The notes beneath the pieces were generated by a model. The model was not told where the DNA came from. It was given only the letters and a program-made list of their open reading frames with translations, and ran no database searches. A program made the position numbers and the translations under genes. From positions 1 through 64,000 of the forward strand of contig NZ_ANOH01000228.1 in the NCBI RefSeq assembly GCF_000346505.1: 64,000 nt of DNA, written 5' to 3'. Of this stretch, positions 126 to 43,994 are shown piece after piece. Within the stretch, counting starts at the first letter, position 1, and every line of letters begins with the position of its first letter. Source of the DNA: Aporhodopirellula sallentina SM41 (GTDB lineage Bacteria > Planctomycetota > Planctomycetia > Pirellulales > Pirellulaceae).

Positions 126-959
126 ATGGCAAAACAAAACTCCGTCGCCCTGACTGCTCGTGACTTCGAGATTTTGACCGCTTTGGATCGAACGCCACTG
201 ACACCACGGCAGCTACAGACAACAAGTCAGTCATTCGATCAGCCGTTCTCCGATGAAGCGTTGGCACGTCGTCGGCTCGGCAAACTACGAGACGCTGGTT
301 TCGTCCAATCATTTCCTTACTCGCTAGTCAGCGAAGGCAGGGCCCCAAAGTATTGGAAGCTGACGCGGGCCGGCTATCGATTGATCTACGGTGCGGATGC
401 AATCATGCCCAGCCGAAGGTATTTCTCTGAAGTACCAATGGGTAACCATTTCCACACTCATTCGATCGCGGCGGTCATTGCTCATATCGTCGCTTGTGGG
501 AAGCGACACGGGGTCGAGATGGATCAGTTTGCTCGGGAGAATAGCTTCAAACTCCAAGCGGGCCAGTTTCAACTGTACCCCGATGCCGCCTTTCGGCTGG
601 TTCGCAAGTCGCAACGTGATCGCCCGTATTCGTTCGTATTGGAACTGGATAACGGAACCGAACGGGTGCGGAGCAACCGCGACACCGAATCATTGGAACG
701 CAAGATCCGAGGCTACGACGCTCATCAATCACAGTACAAACGTGACGATCCAGCCAGGTATCTTGTCCTCTTTGTCACCACGCGGAGCAAATCACGCCTT
801 GATCATGTTCTTGCTGCTTGCGGCAGCTTGGTTCGCAATCCGAATCGAACCACGGTGATTGGGACAACACTCCAAACTCTGCTCGACTGTGATCCCTTCG
901 CTTCCCCGAATCAGGAATCCAATCAAGGTCTCAAAAGAACGCTGATTCCCGTATGTTGA
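126..959 (+). CDS. Replication-relaxation family protein (copy 1)
   Basis: A 277-residue protein with the layout of the replication-relaxation family found on plasmids and integrative elements. An N-terminal winged-helix region (about residues 8-90) ends in a wing around APKYWKLTRAGYRLI. The C-terminal half carries the family-like strand LELDNGTERV. Family members are thought to bind DNA during plasmid replication or mobilisation, but no reaction is established. The frame is open back to position 33; I prefer the ATG at 126 because the family-like sequence begins there. A second member lies at 38659. Both sit in the same island as a VirD4/HerA-like ATPase, and in this copy the Roco gene and an insertion sequence lie between the two. 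Family call is by eye; confidence is moderate to good. Confidence 0.72.
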   Translation: MAKQNSVALTARDFEILTALDRTPLTPRQLQTTSQSFDQPFSDEALARRRLGKLRDAGFVQSFPYSLVSEGRAPKYWKLTRAGYRLIYGADAIMPSRRYFSEVPMGNHFHTHSIAAVIAHIVACGKRHGVEMDQFARENSFKLQAGQFQLYPDAAFRLVRKSQRDRPYSFVLELDNGTERVRSNRDTESLERKIRGYDAHQSQYKRDDPARYLVLFVTTRSKSRLDHVLAACGSLVRNPNRTTVIGTTLQTLLDCDPFASPNQESNQGLKRTLIPVC

Positions 960-6968: not shown

Positions 6969-9212
6969 GTGACTTCCGGAAATCGATCGGCCTCGTCTCG
7001 GCTTGGCCGCAATCGATGGCCTCGCCGAGCGAGTACCCCCGCTATCCCTCGCATGCTGCATTGTTTGACTCTCCCCACTGGCGTAACCAATGGATCGGAA
7101 GCGATGGCTGCAGTGCTGAGAAGCATGCACGCCGCAAATCAGGCTCGCCAAGCGGTTGAACTGATCTTGGCTGAACATGATGGACTTGTTCAATTCTTCG
7201 TTGATTGTCCGCTCAACTTACGATCGCTTCTGCTCGTTCATCTGTTGGATGCATTTCCTGGAGTCAAACTTGAGCGAGTCTCAGAGAGCCTCTTTGATCG
7301 AGATTCCCAAAAATCTCGGGTTGTCACGATTCGACCTGAATACGGCTTTGAATATCTGCGACGTCGCTTCGATCGACATGATCCCATGACGGCGGCGCTT
7401 AGCCTGTTAAAAGGGAGACGTTCATTGCCAAGTCATGCTCGGATCGCGATCCGGTTGCGGCCCGCTCGTGAACACCAAAAACGCTGGGCAGAACGAGCTG
7501 AGTATGTGCAACATGGCCGCTGTTTCAGTGTAGCGCTGCAACGCAGGCTGGTTGAAATGCTGAGTCATGGACGAATGTTGAACCGCTGGTGGGCGATGGC
7601 AATCCGTGCTCTCTGCGTTCGTGGCCCAAGCGGAACGCCACAGGTTAATCGCAAGCTGCATGATTGCCTCTTTGAAGCAGAGATAGGAATCACTGTTAGT
7701 TCAAGTTCCGGTCAACCCAACGCCACAAACGAAAGACTGGTGGGTCTTGTCGGCGGGTTCGCGTTGTTTGCTTCGCCTACGAATCGAATGGTAGTCGGCC
7801 GCAATCGGGGGCTAATGACACCCGAGGAGATCGCCTTGATGTGGCATCCGGTCAGTGACGATGTGCGAGTATCTAAGCTGCACCGTAGCGGTCACATTGA
7901 GCTTGAGCCACCGATCGAATTGCCGGCACCGGGACGGCATACGTCTATGACACCGCTAGGACGCATCGCATACCGAAAAGACAATCGCTTGGTTTGCCTG
8001 CCGATCGCATCGATCCGAAGGCATTGTTACCTAACGGGAAAGACGGGTGTAGGTAAAAGTTCGTTGATGCTGTCAATGCTCACGGCGAATCTGCGAGACA
8101 ATTTCGGCATCGCGCTGCTTGATCCGCATGGTGACCTCTTTCTCGATGCTGCATTGCAAGTACCGAAACGACGCACGAACGACTTGATACTGTTTGATCC
8201 GGGTGACGTTCAGCAACTCGTTCCGTTTAATCCGCTCGATGCTTCAGGTGGCATGGATCGCGGTCGGATTGCCGATGGTGTGTTATCGGCTTTCGTGAAA
8301 GTGTTTAATCTGGATGCTGCGTCGGCACCACGGCTTCTTCACATCTTCAGAAACGCGCTCTACACGCTGGTTGAACAGCCAGACGCCACCTTGATCGGCA
8401 TTAACCGACTCTTAACCGACGCACCTTATCGCAAATCGGCGGTCGCCAGAGTCAGCAATCCGGTAGTGCGGGACTTCTGGCACGGTGAGTTCGGAAAATG
8501 GAACGAGCGTGATCGGGCTCAGTTTCTGGCGAGCTTGCAGAACAAGCTGGGAGCGTTTTTGTCTAATCGTCAGTTGCAGTTGGTTCTGGGGCAACCCAAA
8601 AGCGGCTTCAATCTTCGACAGGTCATGGATAGTGGTGGGATCCTGCTGTGCAATCTCTCGAAAGGACGTCTTGGTGAAGACTCGGCGAATCTTCTCGGGG
8701 CGTTGCTACTCAGTTCGCTGCAACTAGCAGGGGAGTCGCGGGCCGATATTCCAGAAAGTGAACGTCGCGACTTTGTCTGTTACGTGGACGAGTTGCAGAA
8801 CTATTCAACAACCGCTTTGGCAACCTCGTTGTCCGAGGCGCGAAAGTACCGCTCCCCGCTGTTTGTATTGGCGAACCAATATCGAGAGCAGTTGATCCCT
8901 GAACTACGATCCGCCATTATCGGTAATTGTGGATCAGTGATTACGTTTCAAGTTGGTTCGGAAGATGCCCCATTTTGGTCGCGTCACTTCGGAGGCAAGG
9001 TGTCACCGGAACACTTGATGACAATCCCCAAATACCACGCCGTTGCCGACATCCTGATTGACGGAATGCCATCCGGCCCAATGACGTTTCGCACGCTACC
9101 CCCACCACAATGCATTGCGAGTCGGGCCGAAAAGATCAAACGTCACGCAGTGCGTCAATTTGCGCGACCGCGAACTGAACTGGAACGATATGCCGATTCG
9201 ATGTTTCGATAA
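6969..9212 (+). CDS. VirD4/HerA-like conjugation ATPase (copy 1)
   Basis: Up to 747 residues. The C-terminal half is a P-loop motor of the type IV coupling protein/HerA kind: Walker A LTGKTGVGKSS near residue 353, ALLDPHGD just after it, Walker B CYVDELQNY near 604, and LANQYREQL further on. This arrangement fits a TraM-recognition/TraG-type DNA pump for conjugative transfer. The N-terminal 330 residues have no predicted membrane segment I can see; in VirD4 proteins the N-terminus is usually membrane-spanning. The frame opens at a GTG (6969); ATG 7104 is an alternative with a weak GGAAG upstream. The RadC-like gene follows closely. A distant analogue is at 35323. Family call is good; true substrate unknown. 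Confidence 0.8.
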   Translation: MTSGNRSASSRLGRNRWPRRASTPAIPRMLHCLTLPTGVTNGSEAMAAVLRSMHAANQARQAVELILAEHDGLVQFFVDCPLNLRSLLLVHLLDAFPGVKLERVSESLFDRDSQKSRVVTIRPEYGFEYLRRRFDRHDPMTAALSLLKGRRSLPSHARIAIRLRPAREHQKRWAERAEYVQHGRCFSVALQRRLVEMLSHGRMLNRWWAMAIRALCVRGPSGTPQVNRKLHDCLFEAEIGITVSSSSGQPNATNERLVGLVGGFALFASPTNRMVVGRNRGLMTPEEIALMWHPVSDDVRVSKLHRSGHIELEPPIELPAPGRHTSMTPLGRIAYRKDNRLVCLPIASIRRHCYLTGKTGVGKSSLMLSMLTANLRDNFGIALLDPHGDLFLDAALQVPKRRTNDLILFDPGDVQQLVPFNPLDASGGMDRGRIADGVLSAFVKVFNLDAASAPRLLHIFRNALYTLVEQPDATLIGINRLLTDAPYRKSAVARVSNPVVRDFWHGEFGKWNERDRAQFLASLQNKLGAFLSNRQLQLVLGQPKSGFNLRQVMDSGGILLCNLSKGRLGEDSANLLGALLLSSLQLAGESRADIPESERRDFVCYVDELQNYSTTALATSLSEARKYRSPLFVLANQYREQLIPELRSAIIGNCGSVITFQVGSEDAPFWSRHFGGKVSPEHLMTIPKYHAVADILIDGMPSGPMTFRTLPPPQCIASRAEKIKRHAVRQFARPRTELERYADSMFR

Positions 9213-12546: not shown

Positions 12547-12891
12547 ATGAAGTACGAAATTGATCTTCCAGCCGACCTTCAGCAATGTCTTTCCGCTCGC
12601 GCCAGCGAGACGGGGCAAGACGTTGTGCATTTGATCCAGCTTGCTGTGACACGGTTTGTGGCTGAGGAAGTTGGTACGGACGGAGACGATGCTCAGTGGA
12701 CGCAGGCCAAGGACGACCGTCGCTGCGAATTGATTGATCGCGAAATTGCTGGCACCATCAGTGTGCCTGAACTTACCGAGCTCGCGGGCTTGCAAAAGTT
12801 GGCAGAGCGGCACTTCGATGAAATAGCATCTCCGCCGATGGAAGAAGCTCTGAAGCTACACAAGCGGTTACTCTCTCAACCGGATGCGTAG
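12547..12891 (+). CDS. Ribbon-helix-helix-like small protein, antitoxin-like
   Basis: 114 residues. The start (MKYEIDLPADLQQCLSARAS) reads like a ribbon-helix-helix strand followed by a helix, as in CopG-type antitoxins; the rest is an acidic helical tail. It overlaps the HNH-nuclease gene by 8 bp (ATGCGTAG), so the two are translationally coupled. The order small DNA-binding protein then nuclease is like a toxin-antitoxin or self-regulated pair, but this is inference from arrangement only. Confidence 0.62.
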   Translation: MKYEIDLPADLQQCLSARASETGQDVVHLIQLAVTRFVAEEVGTDGDDAQWTQAKDDRRCELIDREIAGTISVPELTELAGLQKLAERHFDEIASPPMEEALKLHKRLLSQPDA

Positions 12892-28697: not shown

Positions 28698-29579
28698 GTG
28701 ACTGATCAGCTTCGCAATGCGTTCGCAGATGAAATCAGAAAGATGCAGCAGGGAGTGCGTCGGCTGAATGTGGAACTTGTGGCCGCAGAGGGAAAGCACG
28801 GTCGTACTTTCTATCGTGTGCAGCTAGTCGGGGCCAGCAACGCTCAGATTGGAACCATCGTTTCGGAAGGTGAGCATCGTTGCATTGCTCTGGCTGGATT
28901 TCTGTCAGAGCTGGCAACTGAACCGACCAAGTCCACAGTCGTATTTGACGATCCGGTAACGTCGCTGGACCATCATTGGCGTGGCTGTTTTGCACACCGG
29001 CTAGTGGAAGAATCGGCTGACCGGCAGGTGATCGTTTTTACCCACGACCTCGTGTTTCTCCATGATTTGCTCGACGGTGCAAGTGAACGCAGCCTGCCCG
29101 TTCAGATTCAGCAACTAGAGGCGCGTCGGGCAACTGCTGGGATAGTTGATGAAGGATTGCCTTGGGACGCGAGAAGCGTAGCATCACGTTTAGATACGCT
29201 TGAAAAAGATATTCGGACCGCTCGCACGCTCTACGAAAATCACGAAGACGAGCCGTACAAAGCGAAGATAGAAGGCGTTTATGGCCGACTGAGGGCAACA
29301 ATCGAAAAAGTTGTTGAAGAACAGATTTTTTGTCGAGTGGTTGTTCGGCACCGTGACTACATCAATTTGAAAGAACTACCGAAAACCGTCGCTGTCACAA
29401 GCGACCACTGCACGCGAATTAAGAACCTGTTCAGCAAGTGCTGTGATATTACTGACGCTCACCATCGATCACCGTCGCGTGGTTTCAGTGTCCCAGCACC
29501 CGCTGATGTTCTGAATGACGTTGCTGAACTCAAGAGTATCGTCGATGCCGTAAAACTTGAGCAAAAGAATCTTTGCTAG
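28698..29579 (+). CDS. PrrC/RloC-like AAA ATPase, C-terminal part
   Basis: The second half of the split ATPase, up to 293 residues by its own GTG but really the continuation of the first. ABC-type signature SEGEHRCIALAGFL near 57, Walker B with VVFDDPVTSLDHH near 81, and the H-loop FTHDLVFLHDL near 113: these complete the nucleotide-binding site begun by the first half. The last 150 residues (ARTLYENHEDE onward) are likely the effector end, with basic and histidine-rich stretches (RHRDYINLKEL, DAHHRSPSRGF), but I see no named nuclease motif. On its own it lacks a Walker A and should not hydrolyse ATP. Confidence 0.78.
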   Translation: MTDQLRNAFADEIRKMQQGVRRLNVELVAAEGKHGRTFYRVQLVGASNAQIGTIVSEGEHRCIALAGFLSELATEPTKSTVVFDDPVTSLDHHWRGCFAHRLVEESADRQVIVFTHDLVFLHDLLDGASERSLPVQIQQLEARRATAGIVDEGLPWDARSVASRLDTLEKDIRTARTLYENHEDEPYKAKIEGVYGRLRATIEKVVEEQIFCRVVVRHRDYINLKELPKTVAVTSDHCTRIKNLFSKCCDITDAHHRSPSRGFSVPAPADVLNDVAELKSIVDAVKLEQKNLC

Positions 29580-29640: not shown

Positions 29641-30639
29641 TCAGATGAGTATCCGTTCAACCTCATCCAGTGTCACTGCATCGCTGCTTCGATTGTATAG
29701 ATTCGTTGTTTTGGACGATGCGTGGGCGGCCATTTGCTGTGCCTTTTCTAGCGTGCCACCGGCCATCATGTAAGCGGTGATGCCTGAGGCGCGGCATGAA
29801 TGATTATTAAATTGGTCGCCCAGACCGGCTTTTCGAGCACGGCGTTTAATCATCCAGCGGGAGTACTCGGCGGCCATGCGGTTTTCGGATAGGTTTCGCT
29901 TGCGATCAAGCGAGCGGAACAGGGGAGTGCCGTTTTGGCCCCATAGGTTTGCACCGTCCAAATAAGCGATCATGGCCTCTTCGGCGTGATGGTTTAGGGG
30001 AAGTGTGTGCTCTCTTCCTCCTTTTTCTTTGAGGCGAACCCAGTAACGGCGACCGTTCTGGTAAACGTCTTCGACGTTCATCGCTACCGCAGCTCCGATG
30101 CGGGCGAATGTGAACAGCATCAGCGAAATCAGAGCCTTGTCGCGAAGGCCACCGACCGTGTCGGTAGAGATCGAGTCAAGAAGAAGCCTCGCATCGATAG
30201 GTTGAAGAGCGGGTGTCTTTCCTTTGACGATGGTGAGCTTTGGCCCTTTGACCGACAGCGATGGATTGTGCCGCATCAATCCGCCGGTCACAAAGTAGTC
30301 GAACATCATGCGAATCGCTGCGAGGTTCTGTTTGACCGATGCCTTGCTGTACCCATCCTGCATTTCCTCGATATAGAAGGCGATCATGGTCGGTTCAATA
30401 TCAGCCAGCCGTGTAATACCACGACCTTCCATCCAACTGCAAAACCGATCGATGGCACGGAGGTATGCCCGCCGCGTATTCTTGTTGCGAACTGAGGCGG
30501 CAAAGAACTCGACATATCTTCGTTTTGTGTCGTCGCCTGCATTCTCAATCAGTGCCGGCACGGTCGCCGCTTCGGTGATCGAGTGCGTCACTTGACGCGA
30601 AGTGAATCCGATGTCTTGATCGCTCTTGGGGAATTCCAT
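29641..30639 (-). CDS. Tyrosine recombinase/integrase
   Basis: 332 residues. A SAM-like N-terminal DNA-binding domain (RRAYLRAIDRFCSWM) precedes the catalytic domain. The catalytic residues are present: Arg180 in FTFARIG, Lys206 in RLKEKGG, His280 and Arg283 in NHSCRASG, His306 in MAAHASS, and nucleophile Tyr315 in TTNLYNR. Sequence is clearly phage-integrase type. It would integrate and excise the island, with crossover likely in the anticodon loop of the tRNA-Leu at 42412. It lies 12 kb from the att site, which is unusual, so a second integrase may exist beyond the left edge. Confidence 0.92.
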   Translation of the reverse strand: MEFPKSDQDIGFTSRQVTHSITEAATVPALIENAGDDTKRRYVEFFAASVRNKNTRRAYLRAIDRFCSWMEGRGITRLADIEPTMIAFYIEEMQDGYSKASVKQNLAAIRMMFDYFVTGGLMRHNPSLSVKGPKLTIVKGKTPALQPIDARLLLDSISTDTVGGLRDKALISLMLFTFARIGAAVAMNVEDVYQNGRRYWVRLKEKGGREHTLPLNHHAEEAMIAYLDGANLWGQNGTPLFRSLDRKRNLSENRMAAEYSRWMIKRRARKAGLGDQFNNHSCRASGITAYMMAGGTLEKAQQMAAHASSKTTNLYNRSSDAVTLDEVERILI

Positions 30640-32361: not shown

Positions 32362-33000
32362 ATGTCGACTACTCGAGTGCTGGAGCCGCCGAGCTCCGAA
32401 CGAAATGGCCGGATCCGTTCGCGGGAACAGCCAATCAAGAGGCAAGTGAAACCGATCAATTGGGGTCGGGTCTATGCCACAGTTAAGTATTGGATAGTGT
32501 CCTTGGTCACGAAAATCGGCCTGGGCATTATCTACATCTCTGCGATCCGCGAGGGTCTTGCCTACATGGTCCCGTTTCTTGGTCAGCGTTTAAGCAAGCT
32601 GCCGGGGTTGTCATTCTTAAATGACTTCGAAGCCACCTACAAGCTTGATCTAGCGATCGTGCTTTCACTGTTTTTACTGGTATTTGTCTGGTGGCTTTGG
32701 GAGAAACTGCTCCTCCTTTGGCTCTACGACGATGACGCAGTGTTTGCGGGCAAGAGCGTTCGAATGCGTGAGCGACGGGCCTGGACTTTTCGCATTCTGG
32801 CACTCGTGATCCTGGGTGCTGATGCGGCATTGTTCTATATCGCGATGTGCATCTCGGGTTGGGGGGACTCAATGTTCTCGTTGCCCGCACTTTTAGCGAC
32901 GGCCGCCTACGTTGGCGTGCTGATCGCGGTTTCTATCCTTTGCATCGATTTAAAGATGCAAGTCAAGCTAGCGAAGGAGCTTTACTCTGATGATGTCTAG
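32362..33000 (+). CDS. Four-helix membrane protein
   Basis: 212 residues. A basic N-terminus (about 35 residues) then four predicted membrane helices: WIVSLVTKIGLGIIYISAI, LDLAIVLSLFLLVFVWWLW, ILALVILGADAALFYIAMC, and LLATAAYVGVLIAVSILC. No family recognised. A hairpin GAGCG/CGCTC with ATCTCTTTAACCCC lies upstream (about 32250-32277). Its end overlaps the vWA lipoprotein gene by 11 bp, so they form a pair. Probably inner-membrane; function unknown. Confidence 0.68.
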   Translation: MSTTRVLEPPSSERNGRIRSREQPIKRQVKPINWGRVYATVKYWIVSLVTKIGLGIIYISAIREGLAYMVPFLGQRLSKLPGLSFLNDFEATYKLDLAIVLSLFLLVFVWWLWEKLLLLWLYDDDAVFAGKSVRMRERRAWTFRILALVILGADAALFYIAMCISGWGDSMFSLPALLATAAYVGVLIAVSILCIDLKMQVKLAKELYSDDV

Positions 33001-33685
33001 AACTTTCATGAAGCACACAATTGCGGTCGTGCTTTTCTTTGGTCTGTTTACGGGATGCGAGGCCCGTCGACAGACGGAACAAACAACATTTGAAGCCCCC
33101 GAGGCGGAATATGTTTTGGCGATTGCTGTCGATTTCAGCGGTTCCTTCATCGACAAGATGGCGAACGATGGTGAGGCATATCGCTTTACCATGGATGTCA
33201 TCGACCGGTATATGCGTGAGCGTCCAAGCGACGAAGGTCGTTTGGTCATCACACAATTGTCGGCGACGGATGACCCGCTTCTGTGGGAAGGGCCTCCAAT
33301 GCAACTGCGAAAAGATTTCGCGTCGGCGGATGACTTTAGAAACTTTGTCCTGGCTCGCAATGATCCTAATGGCAGTCGGATCTTCGAAGGGTTGTCGAGT
33401 ACGCTTTCGTACCTCGACGGCCACCGCGCTATTCGTAACGGTGCAAAGCCAGCCTTGTTCGTTCTTTCGGACATGGCTGATACCAGCGACGACGCGGACG
33501 AACAAGAGGCGGAGATTAGTCTCAAGTTCAAGGAGTTTGGCCAGAGTGGTGGCACGGTGGGAATGTACTACGTGCATCAACAGCTCTTGCCACGCTGGCA
33601 GCAAACGCTCGCCAAGAGCGGAATGCGAGACTACGTCGTCGAGTGTGACATCGTCACACGCCCGACGTTGCCCGAGTTTCAATGA
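32990..33685 (+). CDS. vWA-domain lipoprotein
   Basis: 231 residues. Signal peptide with lipobox: VVLFFGLFTGCE, Cys near 23, so exported and lipid-anchored. A von Willebrand A fold follows with a metal-site motif IAVDFSGSF (DxSxS), then GSRIFEGLSS and LFVLSDMADTS strands. vWA domains bind partners through a metal ion; the lipid anchor puts it at the membrane surface. Overlaps the membrane-protein gene upstream by 11 bp. ATG 33008 is an equally good start. With the ATPase and coiled-coil genes downstream it could belong to an envelope-spanning machine (inference). Confidence 0.75.
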   Translation: MMSRTFMKHTIAVVLFFGLFTGCEARRQTEQTTFEAPEAEYVLAIAVDFSGSFIDKMANDGEAYRFTMDVIDRYMRERPSDEGRLVITQLSATDDPLLWEGPPMQLRKDFASADDFRNFVLARNDPNGSRIFEGLSSTLSYLDGHRAIRNGAKPALFVLSDMADTSDDADEQEAEISLKFKEFGQSGGTVGMYYVHQQLLPRWQQTLAKSGMRDYVVECDIVTRPTLPEFQ

Positions 33686-33915
33686 GTCGCCCATTGTGAC
33701 CCTGGTGACATAACGACATGGCTGGAAATGGAATGCCAGCCTTCTTTCATACGCATAGTTGGCCCGGTGCTGCCTGGTGCTGAAGACTTCCGCTACGTGA
33801 GCTCGATCAATGCTCAAACAAGCGTCTCCGTTTCATGCAGTGACGATCCTGTTGACTCATAGCCGCAGCTTTTCTTCATTCTTTCCAATGCAATTTAGCC
33901 AAACAAAGTGGTGCC

Positions 33916-34455
33916 ATGCTTCCTGCAAAACCAATTCGACGATTTGTATACTTGCTGTGGCTCGGAACTGCAGTTGCTTTCATCTTCTCTACACTCCTTA
34001 TATTGTTCCGCGAGTACCTCTTAGCCAACGATCCTAAACTCGCACGGATGGCCATCGAACTAACCAATCGATTCCTTCCGGGGGCATTCGATCCCATGTT
34101 TACGATTGATTTTGCGACTCTCGTCTCAGCGCTCCTATCGATCAGTACCGTTCCGTCATTGCATGGGTACTTTGCCGTTTTCTTTTTCGGCGAGCCACTT
34201 CCTTGGTACATCGCACTGTTTTTTGACGATCAGTCTGAAAAGCACCTCACGCCTGATAAAGCACGAAGATTGGCGATGGGACAAGCTTGTGCAACGACCG
34301 GAATGATTCTCTATTTAGATTCACATTATTCATTCCTAGCCGCTCGTTCACTCGGGCTATCTTTGTCGACTGCATTTTTAGTCGTGCCGGCAACGGCAGT
34401 CGTAATTGTCCTAGTTGGGTATATCTCATTTCTCCTTGATCGAGCGAGCAAATGA
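33916..34455 (+). CDS. Membrane protein
   Basis: 179 residues. Hydrophobic helices: YLLWLGTAVAFIFSTLLIL near the N-terminus, GYFAVFFFGEPLPWYIALFF in the middle, and STAFLVVPATAVVIVLVGY near the end. No family recognised. Its stop overlaps the next ATG (ATGA), so it is translated together with the coiled-coil protein and probably with the ATPase. Confidence 0.66.
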   Translation: MLPAKPIRRFVYLLWLGTAVAFIFSTLLILFREYLLANDPKLARMAIELTNRFLPGAFDPMFTIDFATLVSALLSISTVPSLHGYFAVFFFGEPLPWYIALFFDDQSEKHLTPDKARRLAMGQACATTGMILYLDSHYSFLAARSLGLSLSTAFLVVPATAVVIVLVGYISFLLDRASK

Positions 34456-35312
34456 TAGACAACAACGTTGGAAGTAGATTCTGGACGATCATTGACACCA
34501 CGCCGATACTCTACTTGTTGGGACTCGCCTACGTGCTTAATAAGCTCGGGGTCGCTTTCGCTCAGCGTTTCCCTCATGTTGGGAACTGGCAGTATGGACT
34601 GGCTGTTGCCACCTTCGCTGCGCTCGGAACCCGACGGTTGGCGGTTGATCCTCCGGCCGAGTTCTTGAACGTTGCACTGGTTCTAATGCGCTGCGGAGCG
34701 TTTGGCTTGGTCGTGTTCGGCCTGGTGGGAACGATTGGCACCGGTTTACTGTCCGTGCGGGATTTTCATCGAGCTGTTATCCGGTGGTTCACTTATCGCC
34801 AACACGAGTCTGCTCGAAGACGCGAGGAAGCTCGCCTCGCTCGGTTACGAGCTGAAAGAAATGCACCACTTACGCCAGAGCAACTGGCGAGACGTCAAGA
34901 AGAGGAACGTCAACAACAAGAACGCTCAATTCGGGAGCAAATTGAACGTGAGCAAGCCGAGCGAGAACTCCATCTCCGCAAGGAAATGGAACTGAGGCTT
35001 AAACTGCGTCTGCGATTGACGACTGATGATGAAATCAAGCAAGTGCTCGAAGAACTGATGACCGAGTTCATGTCAACGTCGCTGCCGATGGATCAGTTCG
35101 AAAAACGAATTGCGATGCTGGAACAGGCTATCAGCGAATTCATTCCTAGGCGAGAGAAAAACTATCAGAGTATTGAGGAGGTGCTGTCAGATTACGACGA
35201 AAAAATTCGCCAGGTTGATTGCTCAAGTCATGCCAAGGAACAGAAGGACAGTTTGAAAGCGGTTTTGTTGATGGAACGTGACTCGATGGTTCAACGGCTG
35301 GCTAACCAATAG
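34452..35312 (+). CDS. Membrane-anchored coiled-coil protein
   Basis: 286 residues. Two to three membrane helices occupy the first 100 residues (TTPILYLLGLAYVLNKLG, RCGAFGLVVFGLVGTIGTGL). A long charged coiled coil follows (ARRREEARLARLRAERN, then a Glu/Arg-rich stretch to about residue 190), then a helical tail with MDQFEKRIAMLEQAI. Overlaps the upstream gene by 4 bp and ends 10 bp before the ATPase gene. Because the ATPase has no membrane helix, this protein is a good candidate for its membrane partner (inference). Confidence 0.7.
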   Translation: MIDNNVGSRFWTIIDTTPILYLLGLAYVLNKLGVAFAQRFPHVGNWQYGLAVATFAALGTRRLAVDPPAEFLNVALVLMRCGAFGLVVFGLVGTIGTGLLSVRDFHRAVIRWFTYRQHESARRREEARLARLRAERNAPLTPEQLARRQEEERQQQERSIREQIEREQAERELHLRKEMELRLKLRLRLTTDDEIKQVLEELMTEFMSTSLPMDQFEKRIAMLEQAISEFIPRREKNYQSIEEVLSDYDEKIRQVDCSSHAKEQKDSLKAVLLMERDSMVQRLANQ

Positions 35313-35322
35313 TAGACTTAAC

Positions 35323-37053
35323 ATGAAGAAGTTTAGGCTGGGCATCGAGGTTCCAGGTGGCGAGCCGGTGTGGTTTCCCCGCGGGCTTTTTGGCACGCAC
35401 CTGCACTACTTGGGGGGCACGGGAAGCGGCAAAACATCGAGTCTCATCAAACTGATCGCACAGGTAATGGTAGCGTCTGTGCTACCCTATACCGTGTTCG
35501 TGATCGATCCGATGGGCGGACTCGCGGAGGCGCTCCTCAATTATCTCGCCCATCCGTATCTCTGCACCGACGAGGTTCGTAAACGGCTCGTGTACTTGGA
35601 GCCGGCCGATACGGATTGGGTTATGCCGTTCTCTTCGCTCGATCACCGGGACGCGGATGAGCTGTACTATGCCCTCGGTCGGCATTGCGACTGCATGCTT
35701 CGCACTGGTCGTGACCATGATTTGACAACGCAACTTCGGCTCAGGCGATGGCTCTATACCTGCTTCCTCTCGACCGCAATGATGCGGTACCCGCCGGCGG
35801 CTGCGCAGTTCTTGCTTCGTCCTGGAACGGAGCAGCACGAGGTTATGCTGTCGCAGTTGCCTGATGTTCTGCAGCTTGAGTGGGCAGAGATCATCAACGC
35901 AGGATCCCGTGAACGCATCACGATGCTCGACAGCACGCGAAACCGGCTAGCGCCATTTTTTAGCTGTCCGGCGCTCAGCCGAATGTTGTCGCGGACGCAA
36001 AACTACTTTGATGTCGCCCGTTTCTTTCGTGAAAAACGCATTGTGATCATCAACCTCGACACCAAAGGCAAACTGGATCGCAACGTTGCCCACGCGATCG
36101 GCGGGCTGCTCGCCAATCAGATAATCGAGGGTGCCCGCAACCTTTCCCCGATGTTGGTTGGACCGTCGATACTCGTGATGGACGAGTTTCAGCATTTCGT
36201 CGATGACACGATGTACGAGAACTTGCCACTGCTAAGACAACGGGGCATGGGCGTCGTTTTGAGCCATCAAAGTTTCGATCAATTGATTAAGGGTGAAGTC
36301 GATATGTCGTCCATTGTTTGGCAGGCGAGGAGTCGCGTCGTTTTGCCCAATGACGGAGCGGATGCGGACCTGATCGCTCAGGAGTTGGCAAGCCTCAACT
36401 ACGACCCGAAGGCGGTCAAGGATGAGATTGTTTCGTTCCGTCAAAAAAAAGTTGGTCAGCAACTCGTGAAATTACACGGCGGCAATTCAGTGAGTACAAC
36501 ATCCAGTGCGACGGATGAAACGCGATCGCTCGGTGGAAACACGGGAACGGCTCGACCTCTTCATGGCGGGGCATTGGAGGGTTCGAAATCCCACGGAGAA
36601 TCTTGGAATCGAGGACAATCAGAGAAAAAGGCGACCAGCGTTGGCGAAACCGAATCCTGGTCAGAAACGTTGGTCGACATCTTGGAGGACTTTTACGAAG
36701 TCAGCGGGCGAACCTTCTACACGTTTGAAGATCAAATGCGGTGCATGGCTCGGGACATTCGTCAGCTCAGGACCGGACAAGGTTTTCTTAAATTGAAAGA
36801 TGATCCACGACTACGACGAGTTGACTTTGATCGACTCGCAATGGCGGCCACCAATGAGATCATCGAACGCCGAGCCGAATTGCTCGAACGAAATTACCGT
36901 GATGCCAGTTTGTTTCTTCCCAAAGCGGTCGTTGAACAAGATTGGGAGCGATTCGTTTCCGGCTTAGCGGGTGGAACAGTAATTCCTCCGCATTTGACAC
37001 GTGGGATCGAGGATACACGCGAGAATGAGGCTGACGATATTTTTCTTCGTTAA
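35323..37053 (+). CDS. VirD4/HerA-like ATPase (copy 2)
   Basis: 576 residues. Walker A LGGTGSGKTSS near 30, FVIDPMGGLAEALLN near 65, Walker B SILVMDEFQHFVDD near 283, and LSHQSFDQL after it. Near 390-450 there is a Ser/Gly-rich linker of the type seen in TraG/TraD-like coupling proteins. No membrane helix. Frame is open to 35278, but ATG 35323 begins the conserved strand. Tightly linked to the membrane/coiled-coil genes, so the ATPase, anchor and vWA lipoprotein may work as one DNA- or protein-moving complex. Followed by a convergent gene, a structured gap and then the second replication-relaxation gene. Confidence 0.82.
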   Translation: MKKFRLGIEVPGGEPVWFPRGLFGTHLHYLGGTGSGKTSSLIKLIAQVMVASVLPYTVFVIDPMGGLAEALLNYLAHPYLCTDEVRKRLVYLEPADTDWVMPFSSLDHRDADELYYALGRHCDCMLRTGRDHDLTTQLRLRRWLYTCFLSTAMMRYPPAAAQFLLRPGTEQHEVMLSQLPDVLQLEWAEIINAGSRERITMLDSTRNRLAPFFSCPALSRMLSRTQNYFDVARFFREKRIVIINLDTKGKLDRNVAHAIGGLLANQIIEGARNLSPMLVGPSILVMDEFQHFVDDTMYENLPLLRQRGMGVVLSHQSFDQLIKGEVDMSSIVWQARSRVVLPNDGADADLIAQELASLNYDPKAVKDEIVSFRQKKVGQQLVKLHGGNSVSTTSSATDETRSLGGNTGTARPLHGGALEGSKSHGESWNRGQSEKKATSVGETESWSETLVDILEDFYEVSGRTFYTFEDQMRCMARDIRQLRTGQGFLKLKDDPRLRRVDFDRLAMAATNEIIERRAELLERNYRDASLFLPKAVVEQDWERFVSGLAGGTVIPPHLTRGIEDTRENEADDIFLR

Positions 37054-37439: not shown

Positions 37440-37960
37440 CCCCTGAAAGTCACTTGGCGCCGCTGGGAACTGGTGCGAGATGCGCTTTGTGGCTGATATG
37501 GAATGGTTCCGCAGGTCGGTCCAGGGTTCGGTCCGGACTGAGGCCCCCCCGGTCCAGCGGGACCGGTTTGTGTGTGTTCATGTATGTTTTTGCCCCCCAA
37601 CCGATTAGGATCGCCTGCGGCTGGCAACGCGATGCGTTTCCAGCCTTGGCTGGAGGGCCACGTTCGCAAAGGAATTGCTCATTAGATTCGTGCCCCTCCA
37701 GCCAAGGCTTCGCCTTAGCGATCCAGCCGTCCACGGAACACCGTGTGCTCCGTAATTACACGCCTGATCGATCATCCGTGGCCGTCTCTTCGTCGTGGCC
37801 GACGAAGGCTAATCGGTCCCCCTTAAGTCGGTCTGCTCGATCGACTTTTCGAACCGCTGATCACCACCGTGGCCGAGCTGGGTTGACCCAGCGTTCGCGA
37901 CTGCGAACAACTACCGTATCGTTGGCAATTTCGCCTACGAGTATCTTTCCCCTTTTTCCT
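37440..37960. other. 521-bp hairpin-rich gap, candidate origin of transfer
   Basis: No gene seen. Stem-loops: CCGGTCC/GGACCGG (37549-37566), a 16-bp inverted repeat AGCCTTGGCTGGAGGG with arms at 37642-37657 and 37694-37709, GCTGGGT/ACCCAGC (37877-37892), and GTTCGC/GCGAAC (37893-37908) directly after it. The density of inverted repeats next to a coupling-type ATPase and a replication-relaxation gene is what an oriT or a structured RNA would look like. The last 20 nt are a pyrimidine leader of the next gene. Confidence 0.5.
37642..37709. repeat. 16-bp inverted repeat with self-palindromic arm
   Basis: AGCCTTGGCTGGAGGG pairs with CCCTCCAGCCAAGGCT across a 36-nt loop. The left arm also overlaps its own palindrome CCAGCC-TT-GGCTGG, so two alternative folds are possible. 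Confidence 0.65.
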
Positions 37961-38401
37961 ATGGAGGATTTCTTTTTACAGCAGCGGCAACCTCGACTGC
38001 TGACAACACCGGCCGACCCGTTTCCGTCTTTGATGGATGCCGTCAAAGAGTTCGCGTGCGTTTCACTCGTTCCCATTCCTGCGAATTGGATCGTCGACGT
38101 GCTGCGAACACGAGAACAACCAGTAGCAATGCCAATTTGCTCGTGGCTGTTTTTGGTTCAAGGTCCGTGGCAGGTTCTAGCGATTCGAAAACGGCTTTCG
38201 GATCATGACTTCGGTGAAGATCTGGATCGTCAAAACCTGATGGATGCCGGTTGGAAAGTCGTTCCTGAAACAGGGCTTTTCGCCATTGAACTCGATCGGC
38301 AATTGCTGATCGGTATCGATGGAATTGGGTATGACTTTGTTGAGGCACATTGGAGGCCGCTCTATGAAGTGCTTGGATTGAGGTGGCATCTCGATGACTA
38401 G
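37961..38401 (+). CDS. Hypothetical protein
   Basis: 146 residues from ATG 37961, after the pyrimidine leader TATCTTTCCCCTTTTTCCT. The frame is open back to 37001 but that part is low-complexity Arg/Ser text overlapping the ATPase gene, so I exclude it. Hydrophobic/aromatic core (ICSWLFLVQGPWQVLAI, then GIDGIGYDFVEAHWRPLYE) suggests a compact alpha-beta protein. It overlaps the next gene by 8 bp and so seems to start a coupled run ending in the replication-relaxation gene. Family not recognised. Confidence 0.6.
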   Translation: MEDFFLQQRQPRLLTTPADPFPSLMDAVKEFACVSLVPIPANWIVDVLRTREQPVAMPICSWLFLVQGPWQVLAIRKRLSDHDFGEDLDRQNLMDAGWKVVPETGLFAIELDRQLLIGIDGIGYDFVEAHWRPLYEVLGLRWHLDD

Positions 38402-38672
38402 CCGATTCTCGGACTTCAAAAATATCTGTACGCCGGACTTGACTCGATCCATGTTCGGCGTACAAATGATTTACCGTTCGCTTGTCGAACGCCTCCATGA
38501 CGCGTTTTCCGCCAGCGTCCCCGTGACGCTGAAGAAAATCCGCTTGGTTGTAATTGCTCCCACCCGGGACCGTCTCTACCGAACATTGCTTCATTTCAGC
38601 AATCGTTCGGTATCTCTATTTGCTTCTGATGCAATGACGGTGAAACAAGGGTCGGTCGATGCAACTTACTGA
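38394..38672 (+). CDS. Hypothetical small protein coupled to both neighbours
   Basis: 92 residues. It overlaps the preceding gene by 8 bp and the following replication-relaxation gene by 14 bp, an arrangement that suggests a real coupled gene. The sequence is basic with strands such as KKIRLVVIAPTRDRLY, and no family is recognised. Coding reality is uncertain: length is modest and there is no ribosome-binding site. Confidence 0.42.
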   Translation: MTSRFSDFKNICTPDLTRSMFGVQMIYRSLVERLHDAFSASVPVTLKKIRLVVIAPTRDRLYRTLLHFSNRSVSLFASDAMTVKQGSVDATY

Positions 38673-39573
38673 ATTGGACATGACGGTACTGAAAACCGTT
38701 GCTCGCTACTACGTTCTGACCCGTGAAATGGTCCAGTCAGTCTGTTGCGCCGATCACGCCAGTGGCCGTGGGACACGCAAGAGATTGTCGCGTCTTGGCC
38801 AAGCAGGCTATCTCACCAAACATCGCGTGCCCGTCGCTTTGCCGGGCACCAACGGAGCGGCCCCGGTGTACTACGCAACCAAGAAGGGATGCGAGGCACT
38901 TGCCAGCTACTTTGGTGATGATGAGTTTTTGGCGACCAATACGCGTACGCCTCGCGCTGATCGCCTGTCGCACTGGATCGCAATTAACAAAACGCGACTT
39001 TTGATTGAAGAGGCTGCTTTGCTTGTCCCCGGATTGAAACTGGTTCACTGGATTACCGAGTGGGAAACGATCAATAAAGGCGATGCCGCATCGGATCAGT
39101 TCTATCTCCATACACAATTCTCAAAAACTCCGCCGCTCTCCTGCTCCCCAGATGCCGGATTTTTATTGGAGTATCGCGGGCAGCGAAAGGTCTACTATCT
39201 GGAGCAAGACTTGGCAACTTCGAGCCCGCGTCAGATTGCTGCGCGGAAGTCAAAGGGCTATGAACGCCTTGCGAAGACAGAGGTTCACCGCAAACACTTC
39301 CCGGAAACAACCATCGGAGCATTTCGGGTATTGTTCGTCACGAGCAACGACTATCGAGCTCGCAAAACGGTGGAAGAAATGAGTGATAAGCCAGGTAAAG
39401 AACTGTGGCTGATGATGAATGAATCCGCATTGACGGTAGACAACTTTTTCACTGGCGACGTCGCGTTGGATCATGAAGGGATCGTCGGGCCATTGGTGCG
39501 AACCCAATCGACACAACAGGTTGATACGACACAGCCTAACCGACCACACGCCGCATCACCGGCTACTGCATAG
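38659..39573 (+). CDS. Replication-relaxation family protein (copy 2)
   Basis: 304 residues. The N-terminal winged helix (LTELDMTVLKTVARYYVLT, then RLSRLGQAGYLTKHRVP, then YYATKKGCEALASYFGDD) matches the family better than copy 1. The C-terminal half has the conserved acidic segment (SPDAGFLLEY then VYYLEQDLATS). It likely binds DNA for replication or transfer. Last gene of a coupled run; the ATPase (copy 2) lies 1.6 kb upstream. Copies 1 and 2 are clearly diverged, so not a recent duplication. Confidence 0.8.
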   Translation: MQLTELDMTVLKTVARYYVLTREMVQSVCCADHASGRGTRKRLSRLGQAGYLTKHRVPVALPGTNGAAPVYYATKKGCEALASYFGDDEFLATNTRTPRADRLSHWIAINKTRLLIEEAALLVPGLKLVHWITEWETINKGDAASDQFYLHTQFSKTPPLSCSPDAGFLLEYRGQRKVYYLEQDLATSSPRQIAARKSKGYERLAKTEVHRKHFPETTIGAFRVLFVTSNDYRARKTVEEMSDKPGKELWLMMNESALTVDNFFTGDVALDHEGIVGPLVRTQSTQQVDTTQPNRPHAASPATA

Positions 39574-39663: not shown

Positions 39664-39936
39664 ATGAGCAATCAAACTCAAAAAGACCAATCCAACGAAC
39701 CGATTCGAGTGTTTCGTGCACCCGGCATGAGTGTCGCGGTTTTCGCAAACACCTCGGATGATGGCCGTACCTTCCACAAGCTGTCGGCTCAACGCGTCTA
39801 CAAATCAGGCGATAAGTTTCGCACCAGTACCAGTTTCTCGGTCGCTGAACTGCCGCAACTGATTTTGCTAATGCTTCGAGCTTGGGCTTATGCCTCAGAC
39901 CTTGAAGATAGCGGCAAGGAACGTGACAACGGTTAG
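39664..39936 (+). CDS. Small protein, paralogue A
   Basis: 90 residues. Pattern: APGMSVAVFAN, RVYKSGDKFRTSTSFSVAEL, then LILLMLRAWAYASD. The gene at 40173 has the same pattern (GNVSASVFARK, QKRYMDGASAKFSSSFGLTEL, IEVLKRALQYVAD), so they are tandem paralogues. The fold looks like a small beta sheet followed by one helix, possibly nucleic-acid binding, but this is inference. ATG lies just after a pyrimidine tract. Confidence 0.62.
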   Translation: MSNQTQKDQSNEPIRVFRAPGMSVAVFANTSDDGRTFHKLSAQRVYKSGDKFRTSTSFSVAELPQLILLMLRAWAYASDLEDSGKERDNG

Positions 39937-40172
39937 TCTTGAAAGAATCGGAGCGGGTCACTTCCCTGACGAAGACCCGCTCCCGCGACCGCTTGGTTGA
40001 TGCATCGAATGACACAATCGAGATTGCCCGTGGGCATTCCGCAAGGTGTCGCTTTGCTGGATTTACGAAAACTCTTCAAGCGATGCTGCTTTCGCATGAT
40101 GCTTGGACTTCCATTGCCGCCCCCAATCGCTGAAGACGAGTCCGTCATTTGCGAGTTTTGAAAGGTCCAAAC

Positions 40173-40448
40173 ATGAACCGAAAAAATCCTGAACATGTCA
40201 TTCGTATTGGCAACGTTTCCGCGAGTGTCTTTGCTCGCAAGATCGAGAAAGAAGGCGAACCGGCCCGCGTTATCCGAAGCGTCAATCTGCAAAAGCGCTA
40301 TATGGATGGTGCCTCCGCCAAGTTCAGTTCTTCATTTGGATTGACTGAACTACCCCAAGCTATCGAGGTATTGAAACGAGCGCTGCAATACGTTGCTGAT
40401 GCCGAATCGGTCGTTGCCCAAGTGTCCAGCGAGCCAGACGACTTCTAG
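40173..40448 (+). CDS. Small protein, paralogue B
   Basis: 91 residues from ATG 40173, preceded by GAAAGG about 7 nt upstream; the frame is open to 40149. It shares its motif order with the gene at 39664 and keeps the two core strands, the ELPQ turn and the final helix. The N-terminal tail is more basic than in paralogue A and the C-terminus more acidic. Between A and B lies a 236-bp spacer with no gene. Confidence 0.62.
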   Translation: MNRKNPEHVIRIGNVSASVFARKIEKEGEPARVIRSVNLQKRYMDGASAKFSSSFGLTELPQAIEVLKRALQYVADAESVVAQVSSEPDDF

Positions 40449-41281: not shown

Positions 41282-41485
41282 ATGAAAGTTGTGTTGAGTG
41301 GCCACGAAGAAAAGGCCAAATGTGTTTGGTGTATGCGGGAGAGAGAAACCGTGAAAGCGAGCTTCTCCGATCGTATGTTTACCAATGCTTCCATTTGCTG
41401 GAAGTGTCTCGCGACCATCGTACGGGTCAAAGCCCAAGACATGGTGGAGCCTTCGTCACAGACGGTTACTGAGAAGAAAGAGTAG
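41282..41485 (+). CDS. Small four-cysteine protein
   Basis: 67 residues. CVWC near residue 14 and CWKC near 40 form two CxxC pairs, typical of a small zinc finger. A short acidic tail follows. GAGAG lies ahead of the ATG at 41282. No family recognised; position before the excisionase-like gene suggests part of the island's control genes. Confidence 0.6.
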   Translation: MKVVLSGHEEKAKCVWCMRERETVKASFSDRMFTNASICWKCLATIVRVKAQDMVEPSSQTVTEKKE

Positions 41486-41574: not shown

Positions 41575-41841
41575 ATGGATACAGACGAGATTACCAGCCG
41601 ATTAAACCGCATCGAATCTTTACTAAGCACATTGATCGAAAAGGAGAAACCCCGGGATTACTACACCACTGCCGAGATCGCCAAAATCTTGGGAAAAGCC
41701 GAATTTACCGTTCGCGAATGGGCGAGAAATGGACGCATTTGGGCGGAGAAACGGCAATGCGGACGTGGTCGCAGCCGAGAATGGATGATCTCGCATGTTG
41801 AGCTTGAACGGATTCAGAACGAAGGGCTTTTGCCTGGCTAG
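41575..41841 (+). CDS. Excisionase-like winged-helix protein
   Basis: 88 residues from ATG 41575. A short coiled N-terminus (RLNRIESLLSTLIEKE), then a MerR/excisionase helix-turn-helix: YYTTAEIAKILGKAEFTVRE with a wing around ARNGRIWAEKRQ and GRSREWMISHVEL. Such proteins bend DNA at att sites to favour excision, or act as small activators. It lies 600 bp from the att site and its four CCTAGTGGG copies, which fits a recombination directionality factor (inference). Frame open to 41497; the upstream part overlaps a hairpin. Confidence 0.72.
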   Translation: MDTDEITSRLNRIESLLSTLIEKEKPRDYYTTAEIAKILGKAEFTVREWARNGRIWAEKRQCGRGRSREWMISHVELERIQNEGLLPG

Positions 41842-42179: not shown

Positions 42180-42427
42180 CCCACTAGGTGCGGTGCATAG
42201 CGTGAATTTCAACAATCCCCCACTAGGTTCGTCGAAAAGCCGCCTTTTTGGCTAACCTAGTGGGGCGAAAAAAGTGACAAAACACGGAACAATTTGACTG
42301 TTTAAAGGCAACTTGTTACAACTGCAAAAGCAACGCGACCCCGTGTTTTACGATGTTTTAAGCTCTGTTTGCAATTTAGCCTCAATTCAAAGCAAGTGAC
42401 AATTTGCGCGATTGAGGGCCTAGTGGG
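42180..42427. repeat. Four copies of CCTAGTGGG around the att site
   Basis: The 9-mer occurs at 42180-42188 and 42219-42227 (as CCCACTAGG), 42256-42264, and 42419-42427 inside the tRNA fragment. The middle two form a hairpin: CCCCACTAGGTT at 42218-42229 pairs with AACCTAGTGGGG at 42254-42265. Likely recombinase or excisionase binding sites. Confidence 0.6.
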
Positions 42428-42464
42428 AGTTAATCCCGTGGAGGTTCGAGTCCTCTCGGCCGCA
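42412..42464 (+). other. att site: 3' fragment of tRNA-Leu(GAG)
   Basis: Anticodon loop TTGAGGG (anticodon GAG), 3' anticodon stem CCTAG, class II variable arm (GGGA-GTTAA-TCCC), T arm around GGTTCGAGTCC, 3' acceptor strand CGGCCGC and discriminator A. The 5' acceptor, D arm and 5' anticodon stem (expected GCGGCCG ... CTAGG) are absent: the sequence to the left is unrelated. This is what an island leaves when it integrates at the anticodon loop. CCA is not encoded. Not a functional tRNA. Confidence 0.82.
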
Positions 42465-42467
42465 TCC

Positions 42468-43932: not shown

Positions 43933-43994
43933 CTCGAATTCTCCTGAATAGATGAGATGAAACATCCTACCAACTCCCACCACGCTGTCAACGC

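What the first reader, a model, noticed from the sequence alone, without database searches (positions are those of the whole stretch)
32362..37053. Membrane, vWA lipoprotein, coiled coil and HerA/VirD4-like ATPase cluster: possible uncharacterised transfer machine
Five plus-strand genes with overlapping or near-touching ends encode a four-helix membrane protein, a vWA lipoprotein with a DxSxS metal site, a second membrane protein, a membrane-anchored coiled coil, and a coupling-type ATPase without membrane helices. A canonical VirD4 carries its own helices; here the anchor looks like a separate subunit. No VirB4 or relaxase is seen in the window. With the structured gap downstream and a replication-relaxation gene, this could be a noncanonical conjugation or secretion module.
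Basis: partly seen in the sequence, partly recalled or inferred. Interest (0 to 1): 0.66.

Follow-up and report, generated by a model that had tools for sequence, protein, structure and literature searches.

The report
Planctomycete mobile element's DNA-transfer module
The five genes sit inside a roughly 50-kb mobile DNA element of a planctomycete bacterium and include the motor and, nearby, the DNA-nicking enzyme expected for moving that element between cells, although no known DNA-transfer channel was found in the host genome.

Summary
The genes are real, but the conserved unit differs from the one proposed. Core: a membrane-anchored coiled coil (34452-35312), an ATPase without membrane helices (35323-37053) and a PF13814 protein (38659-39573). 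The ATPase resembles conjugative coupling proteins; it aligns to the CloDF13-type coupling protein MobB from MobB residue 237 on, i.e. without MobB's membrane part. An anchor-type gene precedes it in 14 of 14 loci. PF13814 includes CloDF13-type MobC relaxase, so a relaxase candidate IS present. A second, related pair lies at 126-959 and 7053-9212. All sit on an integrative element of about 49.6 kb, bounded by a 54-bp exact repeat of a tRNA-Leu end (attR 42412-42465; attL on another contig), with empty sites in relatives. Coupling proteins with a separate anchor have a precedent (pIP501 TraI/TraJ), as do PF13814 relaxases with VirD4 (streptococcal IMEs). New: the combination, its planctomycete elements, two pairs per element, and no helper in sight: VirB4 was absent from 13 of 14 ATPase-positive genomes. 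The vWA/TM pair recurs in 4 loci but is optional; the 179-aa protein had no relative. Most likely a mobilization module with a two-subunit motor; transfer itself is inferred.

The parts
126..959 (+). RR-B: second PF13814 (MOBC-type) protein; ORF opens at 33, likely start ATG 126; contig starts at window base 1
   Evidence: PF13814 E 4.6e-13; relatives have it next to ATPase-B
7053..9212 (+). ATPase-B: longer ATPase with an extra N-terminal domain; separated from RR-B here by a Roco gene and a transposase gene
   Evidence: DUF87 1.1e-7, TrwB_AAD_bind 1.2e-4; SXT_TraD best NCBIfam match
29641..30639 (-). internal tyrosine recombinase upstream of the anchor/ATPase-A module
   Evidence: Phage_integrase 8.9e-20; 91.6% identical to Rubripirellula obstinata locus L096
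32362..33000 (+). four-helix membrane protein, partner of the vWA lipoprotein (accessory, 4 loci)
32990..33685 (+). vWA lipoprotein with DxSxS (accessory, 4 loci)
   Evidence: no Pfam match itself; relative in G289 matches PF00092 at 0.0066, below cut-off; alignment of 4
33916..34455 (+). 179-aa membrane protein, no relative in the stretches compared
34452..35312 (+). anchor: N-terminal membrane segments plus charged coiled coil
35323..37053 (+). ATPase-A: coupling-type ATPase without a membrane domain
37642..37709 (.). 68-bp hairpin between ATPase-A and RR-A; oriT candidate (low confidence)
37961..38401 (+). 146-aa ORF, start of a chain of overlapping ORFs running into RR-A; no Pfam match
   Evidence: grouped with a G289 ORF
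38394..38672 (+). 92-aa ORF overlapping both neighbours
38659..39573 (+). RR-A: MOBC-type relaxase candidate (winged helix + PD-(D/E)XK-like domain)
39664..39936 (+). small protein of the family that follows RR-A in relatives
   Evidence: 38% identical to the G166 protein at that place, E 1e-20
40149..40448 (+). second member of the same small family
   Evidence: 52% identical to the G059 protein, E 3e-26
41282..41485 (+). small four-cysteine protein
   Evidence: E 8e-9 to a G289 protein
41575..41841 (+). HTH_17 protein, excisionase candidate
   Evidence: PF12728 3.7e-8; family member before the terminal integrase in G166
42412..42465 (+). attR: 54-bp exact repeat of the 3' part of tRNA-Leu(GAG); right end of the element

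Best explanation
The cluster is the mobilization module of an integrative element (about 49.6 kb, in tRNA-Leu). Shown: integration with a duplicated att site; a recurrent anchor-ATPase-PF13814 core; an ATPase related to coupling proteins; a PF13814 protein related to MobC relaxases. Inferred: the tyrosine integrase excises the element; the MOBC-type protein binds an oriT through its winged helix and nicks one strand with its PD-(D/E)XK-like site; the anchor recruits the ATPase to the inner membrane and together they do what one VirD4/MobB chain does, pumping the strand to a mating channel. No channel genes were recognised on the element, so the channel must come from a helper element (IME-like life style) that was not found in the host genome, or be of unknown kind. 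The second pair (ATPase-B + RR-B), next to a primase, is probably a second DNA-processing pair, perhaps for replication of the excised circle.
For: att sites and empty sites; second case G166, 66.1 kb, 56-bp repeat with 2 mismatches; a tRNA within about 180 bp of the terminal tyrosine recombinase in 8 distinct loci (integrase domains confirmed for those tested). Anchor-type gene upstream in 14 of 14 loci, 4-nt overlap in 9 of 15. Of 17 PF13814 genes in 392 genomes, 10 have an ATPase of this superfamily within 2 kb, 11 within 7 kb. ATPase-A profile vs MobB: hhalign 95%, E 3.5e-8, from MobB residue 237. The MobC compared is PF13814, E 1.7e-22. H105, P164, D165, E182 invariant in 18 sequences including MobC. 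Correlated divergence of the three proteins, r 0.68-0.81, p 1e-4, 15 loci.
Against: No transfer channel: VirB4 in 1 of 14 ATPase-positive genomes and 12 of 392 in the phylum, all 12 listed outside the window's class. No oriT demonstrated; strong hairpins in only 2 or 3 of 14 gaps. No NCBIfam cut-off reached by the ATPases. For ATPase-B, Pfam ranks HerA's DUF87 first in 2 of 4. By fold, DndH and VirB4 score slightly above TrwB for ATPase-A. hhalign of a six-row RR profile with MobC was weak and covered only the winged helix (7%, E 0.005). The PD-(D/E)XK domain was not returned by the fold search. Anchor and MobB membrane part share no detectable similarity. Of 14 loci, 5 show no RR-A in the sequence held. 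Correlated divergence may reflect shared descent only.
Confidence: 0.65

Rival explanations
1. Self-contained transfer system without VirB4: the two ATPases (one with a separate anchor, one with its own N-terminal domain) and host or element envelope proteins move the DNA without any conventional T4SS, in the manner of Streptomyces TraB-type transfer (comparison recalled).
For: VirB4 missing in 13 of 14 ATPase-positive genomes, among them five single-contig ones; none of the 12 VirB4-bearing genomes of 392 is listed in the window's class; both ATPase types on one contig in G000, G166, G310, G289, G479 and G408.
Against: No gene for an envelope channel was recognised to recur; genes in front of the anchor change from locus to locus. 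A helper may be transient or diverged beyond the profile; only 2 candidates a genome were scored.
Confidence: 0.15
2. Intracellular DNA processing only: PF13814 protein and ATPase serve replication, resolution or partition of the excised element, not cell-to-cell transfer.
For: RR-B sits beside a primase and a replication-initiator candidate; DnaB in the G166 element; PHROG label 'replication initiation by nicking'.
Against: A membrane anchor for a replication motor is hard to justify; both protein families are those of CloDF13 mobilization.
Confidence: 0.12
3. HerA-like repair or defence ATPase with a nuclease partner.
For: Fold overlap with HerA (Z 22.3); weak PADLOC mad8/HerA hits for ATPase-A; DUF87 first in Pfam for 2 of 4 ATPase-B proteins; defence genes in the same element.
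Against: NCBIfam ranks coupling proteins first for 8 of 8 ATPases tested; DUF87 below cut-off for ATPase-A; TrwB aligned over more residues than HerA (381 vs 307); the partner is a MobC relative.
Confidence: 0.04
4. Genome-packaging motor of an undetected virus-like element.
For: FtsK/HerA-superfamily ATPases also package DNA in some viruses (established knowledge, not tested here).
Against: No relative found in the viral contigs or 50,697 phage records (the viral scan depends on short patterns); no capsid family among the Pfam and PHROG matches of the proteins scanned, which were a selection.
Confidence: 0.04

Closest known systems
CloDF13 MobB-MobC (MOBC1 mobilizable plasmids)
   Same: Coupling protein gene followed by a PF13814 relaxase gene; ATPase-A aligns to MobB; RR-A and MobC are both PF13814 (the MobB/MobC compared are those of the CloDF13-type plasmid NZ_CP090938.1)
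   Different: MobB is one chain with three N-terminal hydrophobic segments; here the membrane part is another protein without detectable similarity; integrative element, two pairs, planctomycete
pIP501 TraI/TraJ two-protein coupling protein
   Same: VirD4-like ATPase without membrane domain, membrane protein encoded directly upstream (PMC4981023, PMC7434980; passages seen)
   Different: pIP501 has a full T4SS with VirB4-like TraE and an IncQ-type relaxase; sequence relation to it not tested here
Streptococcal IMEs with PF13814 relaxase and VirD4
   Same: Integrase, PF13814 relaxase and VirD4-type coupling protein, no T4SS (PMC5357655, PMC12479173; passages seen)
   Different: Serine integrases in the two IMEs of PMC5357655; no split anchor mentioned in the passages seen; Firmicutes
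pAD1 TraX (MOBC)
   Same: MOBC relaxase of the PD-(D/E)XK type, active site supported by mutagenesis (as reviewed in PMC12857230, passage seen)
   Different: Sequence not compared here; the original paper was not held

Membership tests
MOBC relaxase (PF13814) | match to PF13814 above its cut-off, the family that holds CloDF13-type MobC | tested here: met
   RR-A 67.8 bits, RR-B 50.1 bits against 25.3; MobC of NZ_CP090938.1 80.9 bits
MOBC relaxase (PF13814) | PD...E-x-(D/E) active-site residues | tested here: met
   P164, D165, E182 invariant in 18 sequences with MobC; residue 184 is D, in MobC E; all four invariant in 9
MOBC relaxase (PF13814) | PD-(D/E)XK fold | tested here: inconclusive
   Model pLDDT 84.6: helix 100-122, strand 126-133, strands 166-172 and 175-184, helix 190-207, strand 222-228 fit the topology, but the fold search returned the N-terminal winged helix
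MOBC relaxase (PF13814) | site-specific nicking at an oriT | not testable with these tools
   needs biochemistry
Type IV coupling protein (VirD4/TraD/TrwB) | RecA-like NTPase domain with Walker motifs, nearest to coupling-protein profiles | tested here: met
   TrwB_AAD_bind 26.9 bits vs cut-off 20.5 for ATPase-A; coupling-protein models first in NCBIfam for 8 of 8 ATPases; TrwB Z 24.4 over 381 residues, though DndH 26.6 and VirB4 26.4 score higher
Type IV coupling protein (VirD4/TraD/TrwB) | curated NCBIfam cut-off of a named coupling-protein family | tested here: not met
   P0001 best 28.3 bits vs 366; none of 8 ATPases reaches a cut-off
Type IV coupling protein (VirD4/TraD/TrwB) | N-terminal membrane domain in the same chain | tested here: not met
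   none in ATPase-A; alignment to MobB starts at MobB 237
Two-protein coupling protein (pIP501 type) | separate membrane protein encoded directly upstream | tested here: met
   anchor-type gene in 14 of 14 loci; physical interaction not testable
Integrative mobilizable element | integrase, att repeats, relaxase candidate, no VirB4 | tested here: met
Integrative conjugative element | own VirB4 | tested here: not met
   TIGR00929: no match in G000 at E 1e-10
HerA-NurA | DUF87 over cut-off in ATPase-A | tested here: not met
   16.8 bits vs 23.2

The most novel reading that the evidence does not exclude
Planctomycetes of this class use a VirB4-free DNA-transfer machine: a two-subunit membrane motor and a MOBC relaxase, working in tandem with a second ATPase/MOBC pair in the same element, move integrative elements between cells through a channel that is not a type IV secretion system.
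Probability: 0.15. Interest if true: 0.88.

Novelty: new variant of a known kind. Interest (0 to 1): 0.58.

Why it matters
A defence island rides on this element, yet VirB4-based conjugation was rare in the sampled phylum and not listed for the window's class. These elements give delimited units, with att sites, a candidate relaxase and a candidate motor, in which the question how DNA leaves and enters such cells becomes testable. They also offer a natural division of a coupling protein into motor and anchor, besides that of pIP501.

Tried and rejected
Five genes as a conserved machine: rejected, since the genes before the anchor vary: vWA/TM pair, ABC transporter with FtsX permease, ECF sigma factor and kinase, trypsin-like peptidase, ThiF (domains checked on examples). 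Anchor as homologue of the MobB membrane domain: no similarity (hhalign 0.5%). Hairpin as a dispersed REP element: rejected, a 15-nt arm pattern occurs only there in the 8.2-Mb assembly at up to one mismatch. Hairpin as conserved oriT: not supported. att repeat for G310: not found; a blind repeat search around five elements found nothing convincing (the G166 repeat lay outside the stretch then held). Relatives in viral contigs, plasmids and phages: none found. First genome-contig scan with one sequence: nothing. The C-terminal domain of RR-A gave no match in the fold lists shown, which says nothing against it. My first labels for three proteins did not stand the check: 42763-43983 (called REP-type transposase) has no Pfam match; the C110 protein 3352-4122 is not shown to be HTH; the JAB-like protein of G472 is below cut-off and that of G092 has no match. 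Literature: planctomycetes with relaxase and coupling protein (4 papers, all listed), with VirB4 and conjugation (5, all listed), with ICE/T4SS/relaxase terms (15 of 223 listed), Rhodopirellula with mobile-element terms (15 of 3,016 listed) gave no description of such elements in the listings; passages of two of these papers were also seen. This is an open-licence library only.

A first Mantel run used a frame-shifted L091 relaxase and is superseded. In one search one query file failed to parse at its fourth entry, so the direct searches with the anchor and RR queries did not run there; anchor and RR labels come from the other search of the same call. The ORF finder skips ORFs that run off a contig end, so ATPases cut by an end were not counted.
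Full report
CHECK. The five ORFs are present at the stated places. The ATPase most likely starts at ATG 35323 (576 aa), 10 nt after the anchor gene; the junction 33685/33916 is a 230-bp gap. Pfam gives nothing above cut-off for the first four proteins, TrwB_AAD_bind above cut-off for the ATPase (26.9 bits, cut-off 20.5) and Replic_Relax for 38659-39573. The window is bases 1-64000 of a 92,994-bp contig of an 8.19-Mb genome in 491 contigs.

A SECOND PAIR. The same genome holds one further, weaker ATPase relative, in the ORF 7053-9212, and the window's first gene is another PF13814 protein. In G019, G092 and G310 these two are neighbours. ATPase-A and an ATPase of B type lie on one contig, 6 to 26 kb apart, in G000, G166, G310, G289, G479 and G408 (in G408 the type is judged by score and gene order). 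Three other loci of which I held 52-60 kb (G276, G392, G059) showed no second ATPase in the stretch held.

DISTRIBUTION. P0001 at E 1e-10: 4 of 98 genomes with the own one included; the others are G059 (34% identity), G092 (24 and 25%) and G019 (25%, B type); none of the 12 other genomes of the genus. Three-row ATPase profile at E 1e-20: 20 of 392 genomes of the phylum, own included, B-type and remoter ATPases among them. PF13814 at E 1e-8: 10 of 392, own included. None found in viral contigs, plasmids, phages.

CONSERVED CORE. In 14 of 14 loci an ORF labelled anchor by similarity is the nearest same-strand gene before the ATPase (in L093 cut by the contig end, in L097 about 880 bp away with an opposite ORF between, in L096 without a recognised membrane segment as called); coiled-coil composition may help the similarity. 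In 15 loci with all three genes, anchor and ATPase overlap by 4 nt in 9. An RR-A homologue follows in 9 of 14; two contigs end first (L085, L087), in L097 it lies 13.5 kb on, L089 and L098 show none in the sequence held. Conversely, of 17 PF13814 genes, 10 have an ATPase of this superfamily within 2 kb and 11 within 7 kb; of the other six, three were held only in part (G408:C202, G187, G360:C76), two start within 1.6 kb of a contig end (G360:C63, G360:C72), one (G273) has none in 18 kb. Pairwise divergences correlate: ATPase-anchor 0.81, RR-anchor 0.76, ATPase-RR 0.68, each p 1e-4, 15 loci; shared descent explains this as well as physical partnership. The vWA lipoprotein and its TM partner recur together in 4 loci: directly before the anchor in L088 and L091, with one gene between in the window, and beyond RR-A in G289; D-x-S-x-S is kept in 4 of 4. 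The 179-aa protein had no relative in the 27 stretches compared.

WHAT THE PROTEINS ARE. NCBIfam ranks coupling proteins (SXT TraD, CD1115 VirD4-like) first for 4 of 4 ATPase-A and 4 of 4 ATPase-B proteins, far below curated cut-offs; VirB4 and HerA, where listed, are weaker. Pfam is less clear for ATPase-B: DUF87 (HerA) first in 2 of 4, coupling-protein families first in 2. The three-row ATPase-A profile aligns to MobB of a CloDF13-type plasmid at 95% probability, E 3.5e-8, ATPase residue 4 to MobB 237, so the first 236 MobB residues, with three hydrophobic segments, have no counterpart in the chain. The predicted ATPase (pLDDT 78.3) matches DndH-C, VirB4, TrwB and HerA by fold (Z 26.6, 26.4, 24.4, 22.3; rmsd 3.0, 3.2, 3.8, 4.0; aligned 336, 332, 381, 307), TrwB over 1-526 against 107-505; Foldseek ranks Cag-beta and TrwB first. 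The fold alone does not separate VirD4 from VirB4. The anchor shows no similarity to the MobB membrane part.

RELAXASE. The plasmid MobC is PF13814 (E 1.7e-22) and is annotated 'MobC family replication-relaxation protein', the plasmid typed MOBC. A review places MOBC in the PD-(D/E)XK superfamily and cites mutagenesis of pAD1 TraX (PMC12857230, passage); IMEs with PF13814 relaxase plus VirD4 are on record (PMC5357655, PMC12479173, passages). In 18 aligned sequences with MobC, H105, P164, D165 and E182 are invariant. The RR-A model (pLDDT 84.6, pTM 0.82) has a MarR-like winged helix (residues 2-87, Z 12.6, rmsd 1.7, 78 aligned) and then helix-strand-strand-strand-helix-strand with PD just before strand 166-172 and E182/D184 at the end of strand 175-184, the arrangement expected of PD-(D/E)XK enzymes (topology recalled). 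A direct hhalign of a six-row profile with MobC was weak and covered only the winged helix.

THE ELEMENT. A relative of the primase that neighbours RR-B elsewhere starts at base 3 of contig C110 of the same genome, 66% identical to the G289 protein. C110, read in reverse, gives trpF (PRAI), tRNA-Leu(GAG), a 436-aa tyrosine integrase 42% identical to that of G166, a coiled-coil protein related to one in G310, a replication-initiator candidate (47% identical to a G092 protein; no Pfam match; the G310 member has a sub-threshold RPA match) and the primase, and should abut window base 1. A 54-bp exact repeat joins the tRNA (C110 7033-7086) with window 42412-42465. Element: 7086 + 42465 = 49,551 bp plus any gap between contigs. 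In 8 of 9 same-genus loci tRNA-Leu(GAG) stands beside trpF (the ninth ends early). In 5 of these 8 the tRNA end and the following sequence match the window's right flank over about 100 bp at 88-96%, i.e. the empty site; the other three match over 54-68 bp. In the single-contig chromosome G166 a 56-bp repeat (2 mismatches) of tRNA-Leu(CAA) bounds 66.1 kb. Eight distinct loci have a tRNA within about 180 bp of the terminal tyrosine recombinase (23 stretches scanned, several cut before an element end).

NO CHANNEL. VirB4 (TIGR00929, E 1e-10) is in 1 of 14 genomes chosen for an ATPase hit (G472); G445 and G438 entered by an ATPase hit only and were not examined further. The control rang in 6 of 14 well-known genomes, in 1 over the cut-off. 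In 392 genomes of the phylum at E 1e-30: 12, all listed as 'same phylum', i.e. outside the window's class; 2 candidates scored per genome, 1 over the cut-off.

MECHANISM. Shown: past mobility, core, family relations. Inferred: nick, recruitment, strand pumping, channel. The separate anchor is not unprecedented: pIP501 TraJ lacks a membrane domain and TraI, encoded just upstream, is thought to recruit it (PMC4981023, passages; PMC7434980, passages); deletion of the MobB membrane domain abolishes mobilization (PMC7431656, passages), so a soluble MobB-like motor would need such a partner. Verdict: new variant of a known kind, with an open question about the channel. On rechecking, the odds moved only slightly (best reading 0.66 to 0.65, intracellular rival 0.11 to 0.12), because the Pfam ranking of ATPase-B is now counted against.

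Noticed in passing
window 1368-29579: The element's cargo is rich in defence-type genes: Roco/LRR GTPase, RadC, type I restriction-modification (HsdR, HsdM), Hachiman HamA/HamB, and a PDC-S06 candidate split over two ORFs (26915-28651 matches its first 552 positions, 28698-29579 positions 573-854).
   Followed up: partly
window 37642-37709: Strong hairpin (z -6.9) between ATPase-A and RR-A; Rubripirellula locus L096 has a different hairpin in the same gap (12811-12901). oriT or terminator unknown.
   Followed up: partly
window 42180-42402: Repeated CCCACTAGG/CCTAGTGGG and AAGTGACA motifs beside attR, AAGTGACA also beside attL on C110; integrase arm-type sites possible.
   Followed up: no
L052 17584-18531, L064 8075-8932, L008 840-2510, L063: ThiF/E1-type genes just before the anchor or ATPase in G479, G472 and, further upstream, G092, same family in G392; a sub-threshold JAB-like gene beside it in G472. 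Recurrent cargo or partner unknown.
   Followed up: partly
window 5099-6586: DDE transposase gene, with a Roco gene, lies between RR-B and ATPase-B, which are neighbours in relatives.
   Followed up: no
window 42763-43983: Large minus-strand ORF just outside attR, transposase-like by eye but without a Pfam match; similar sequence lies beside the empty site of relative L112.
   Followed up: partly
L046 2230-4595 (G166): ATPase-B of G166 is split over two overlapping ORFs, possibly inactive.
   Followed up: no
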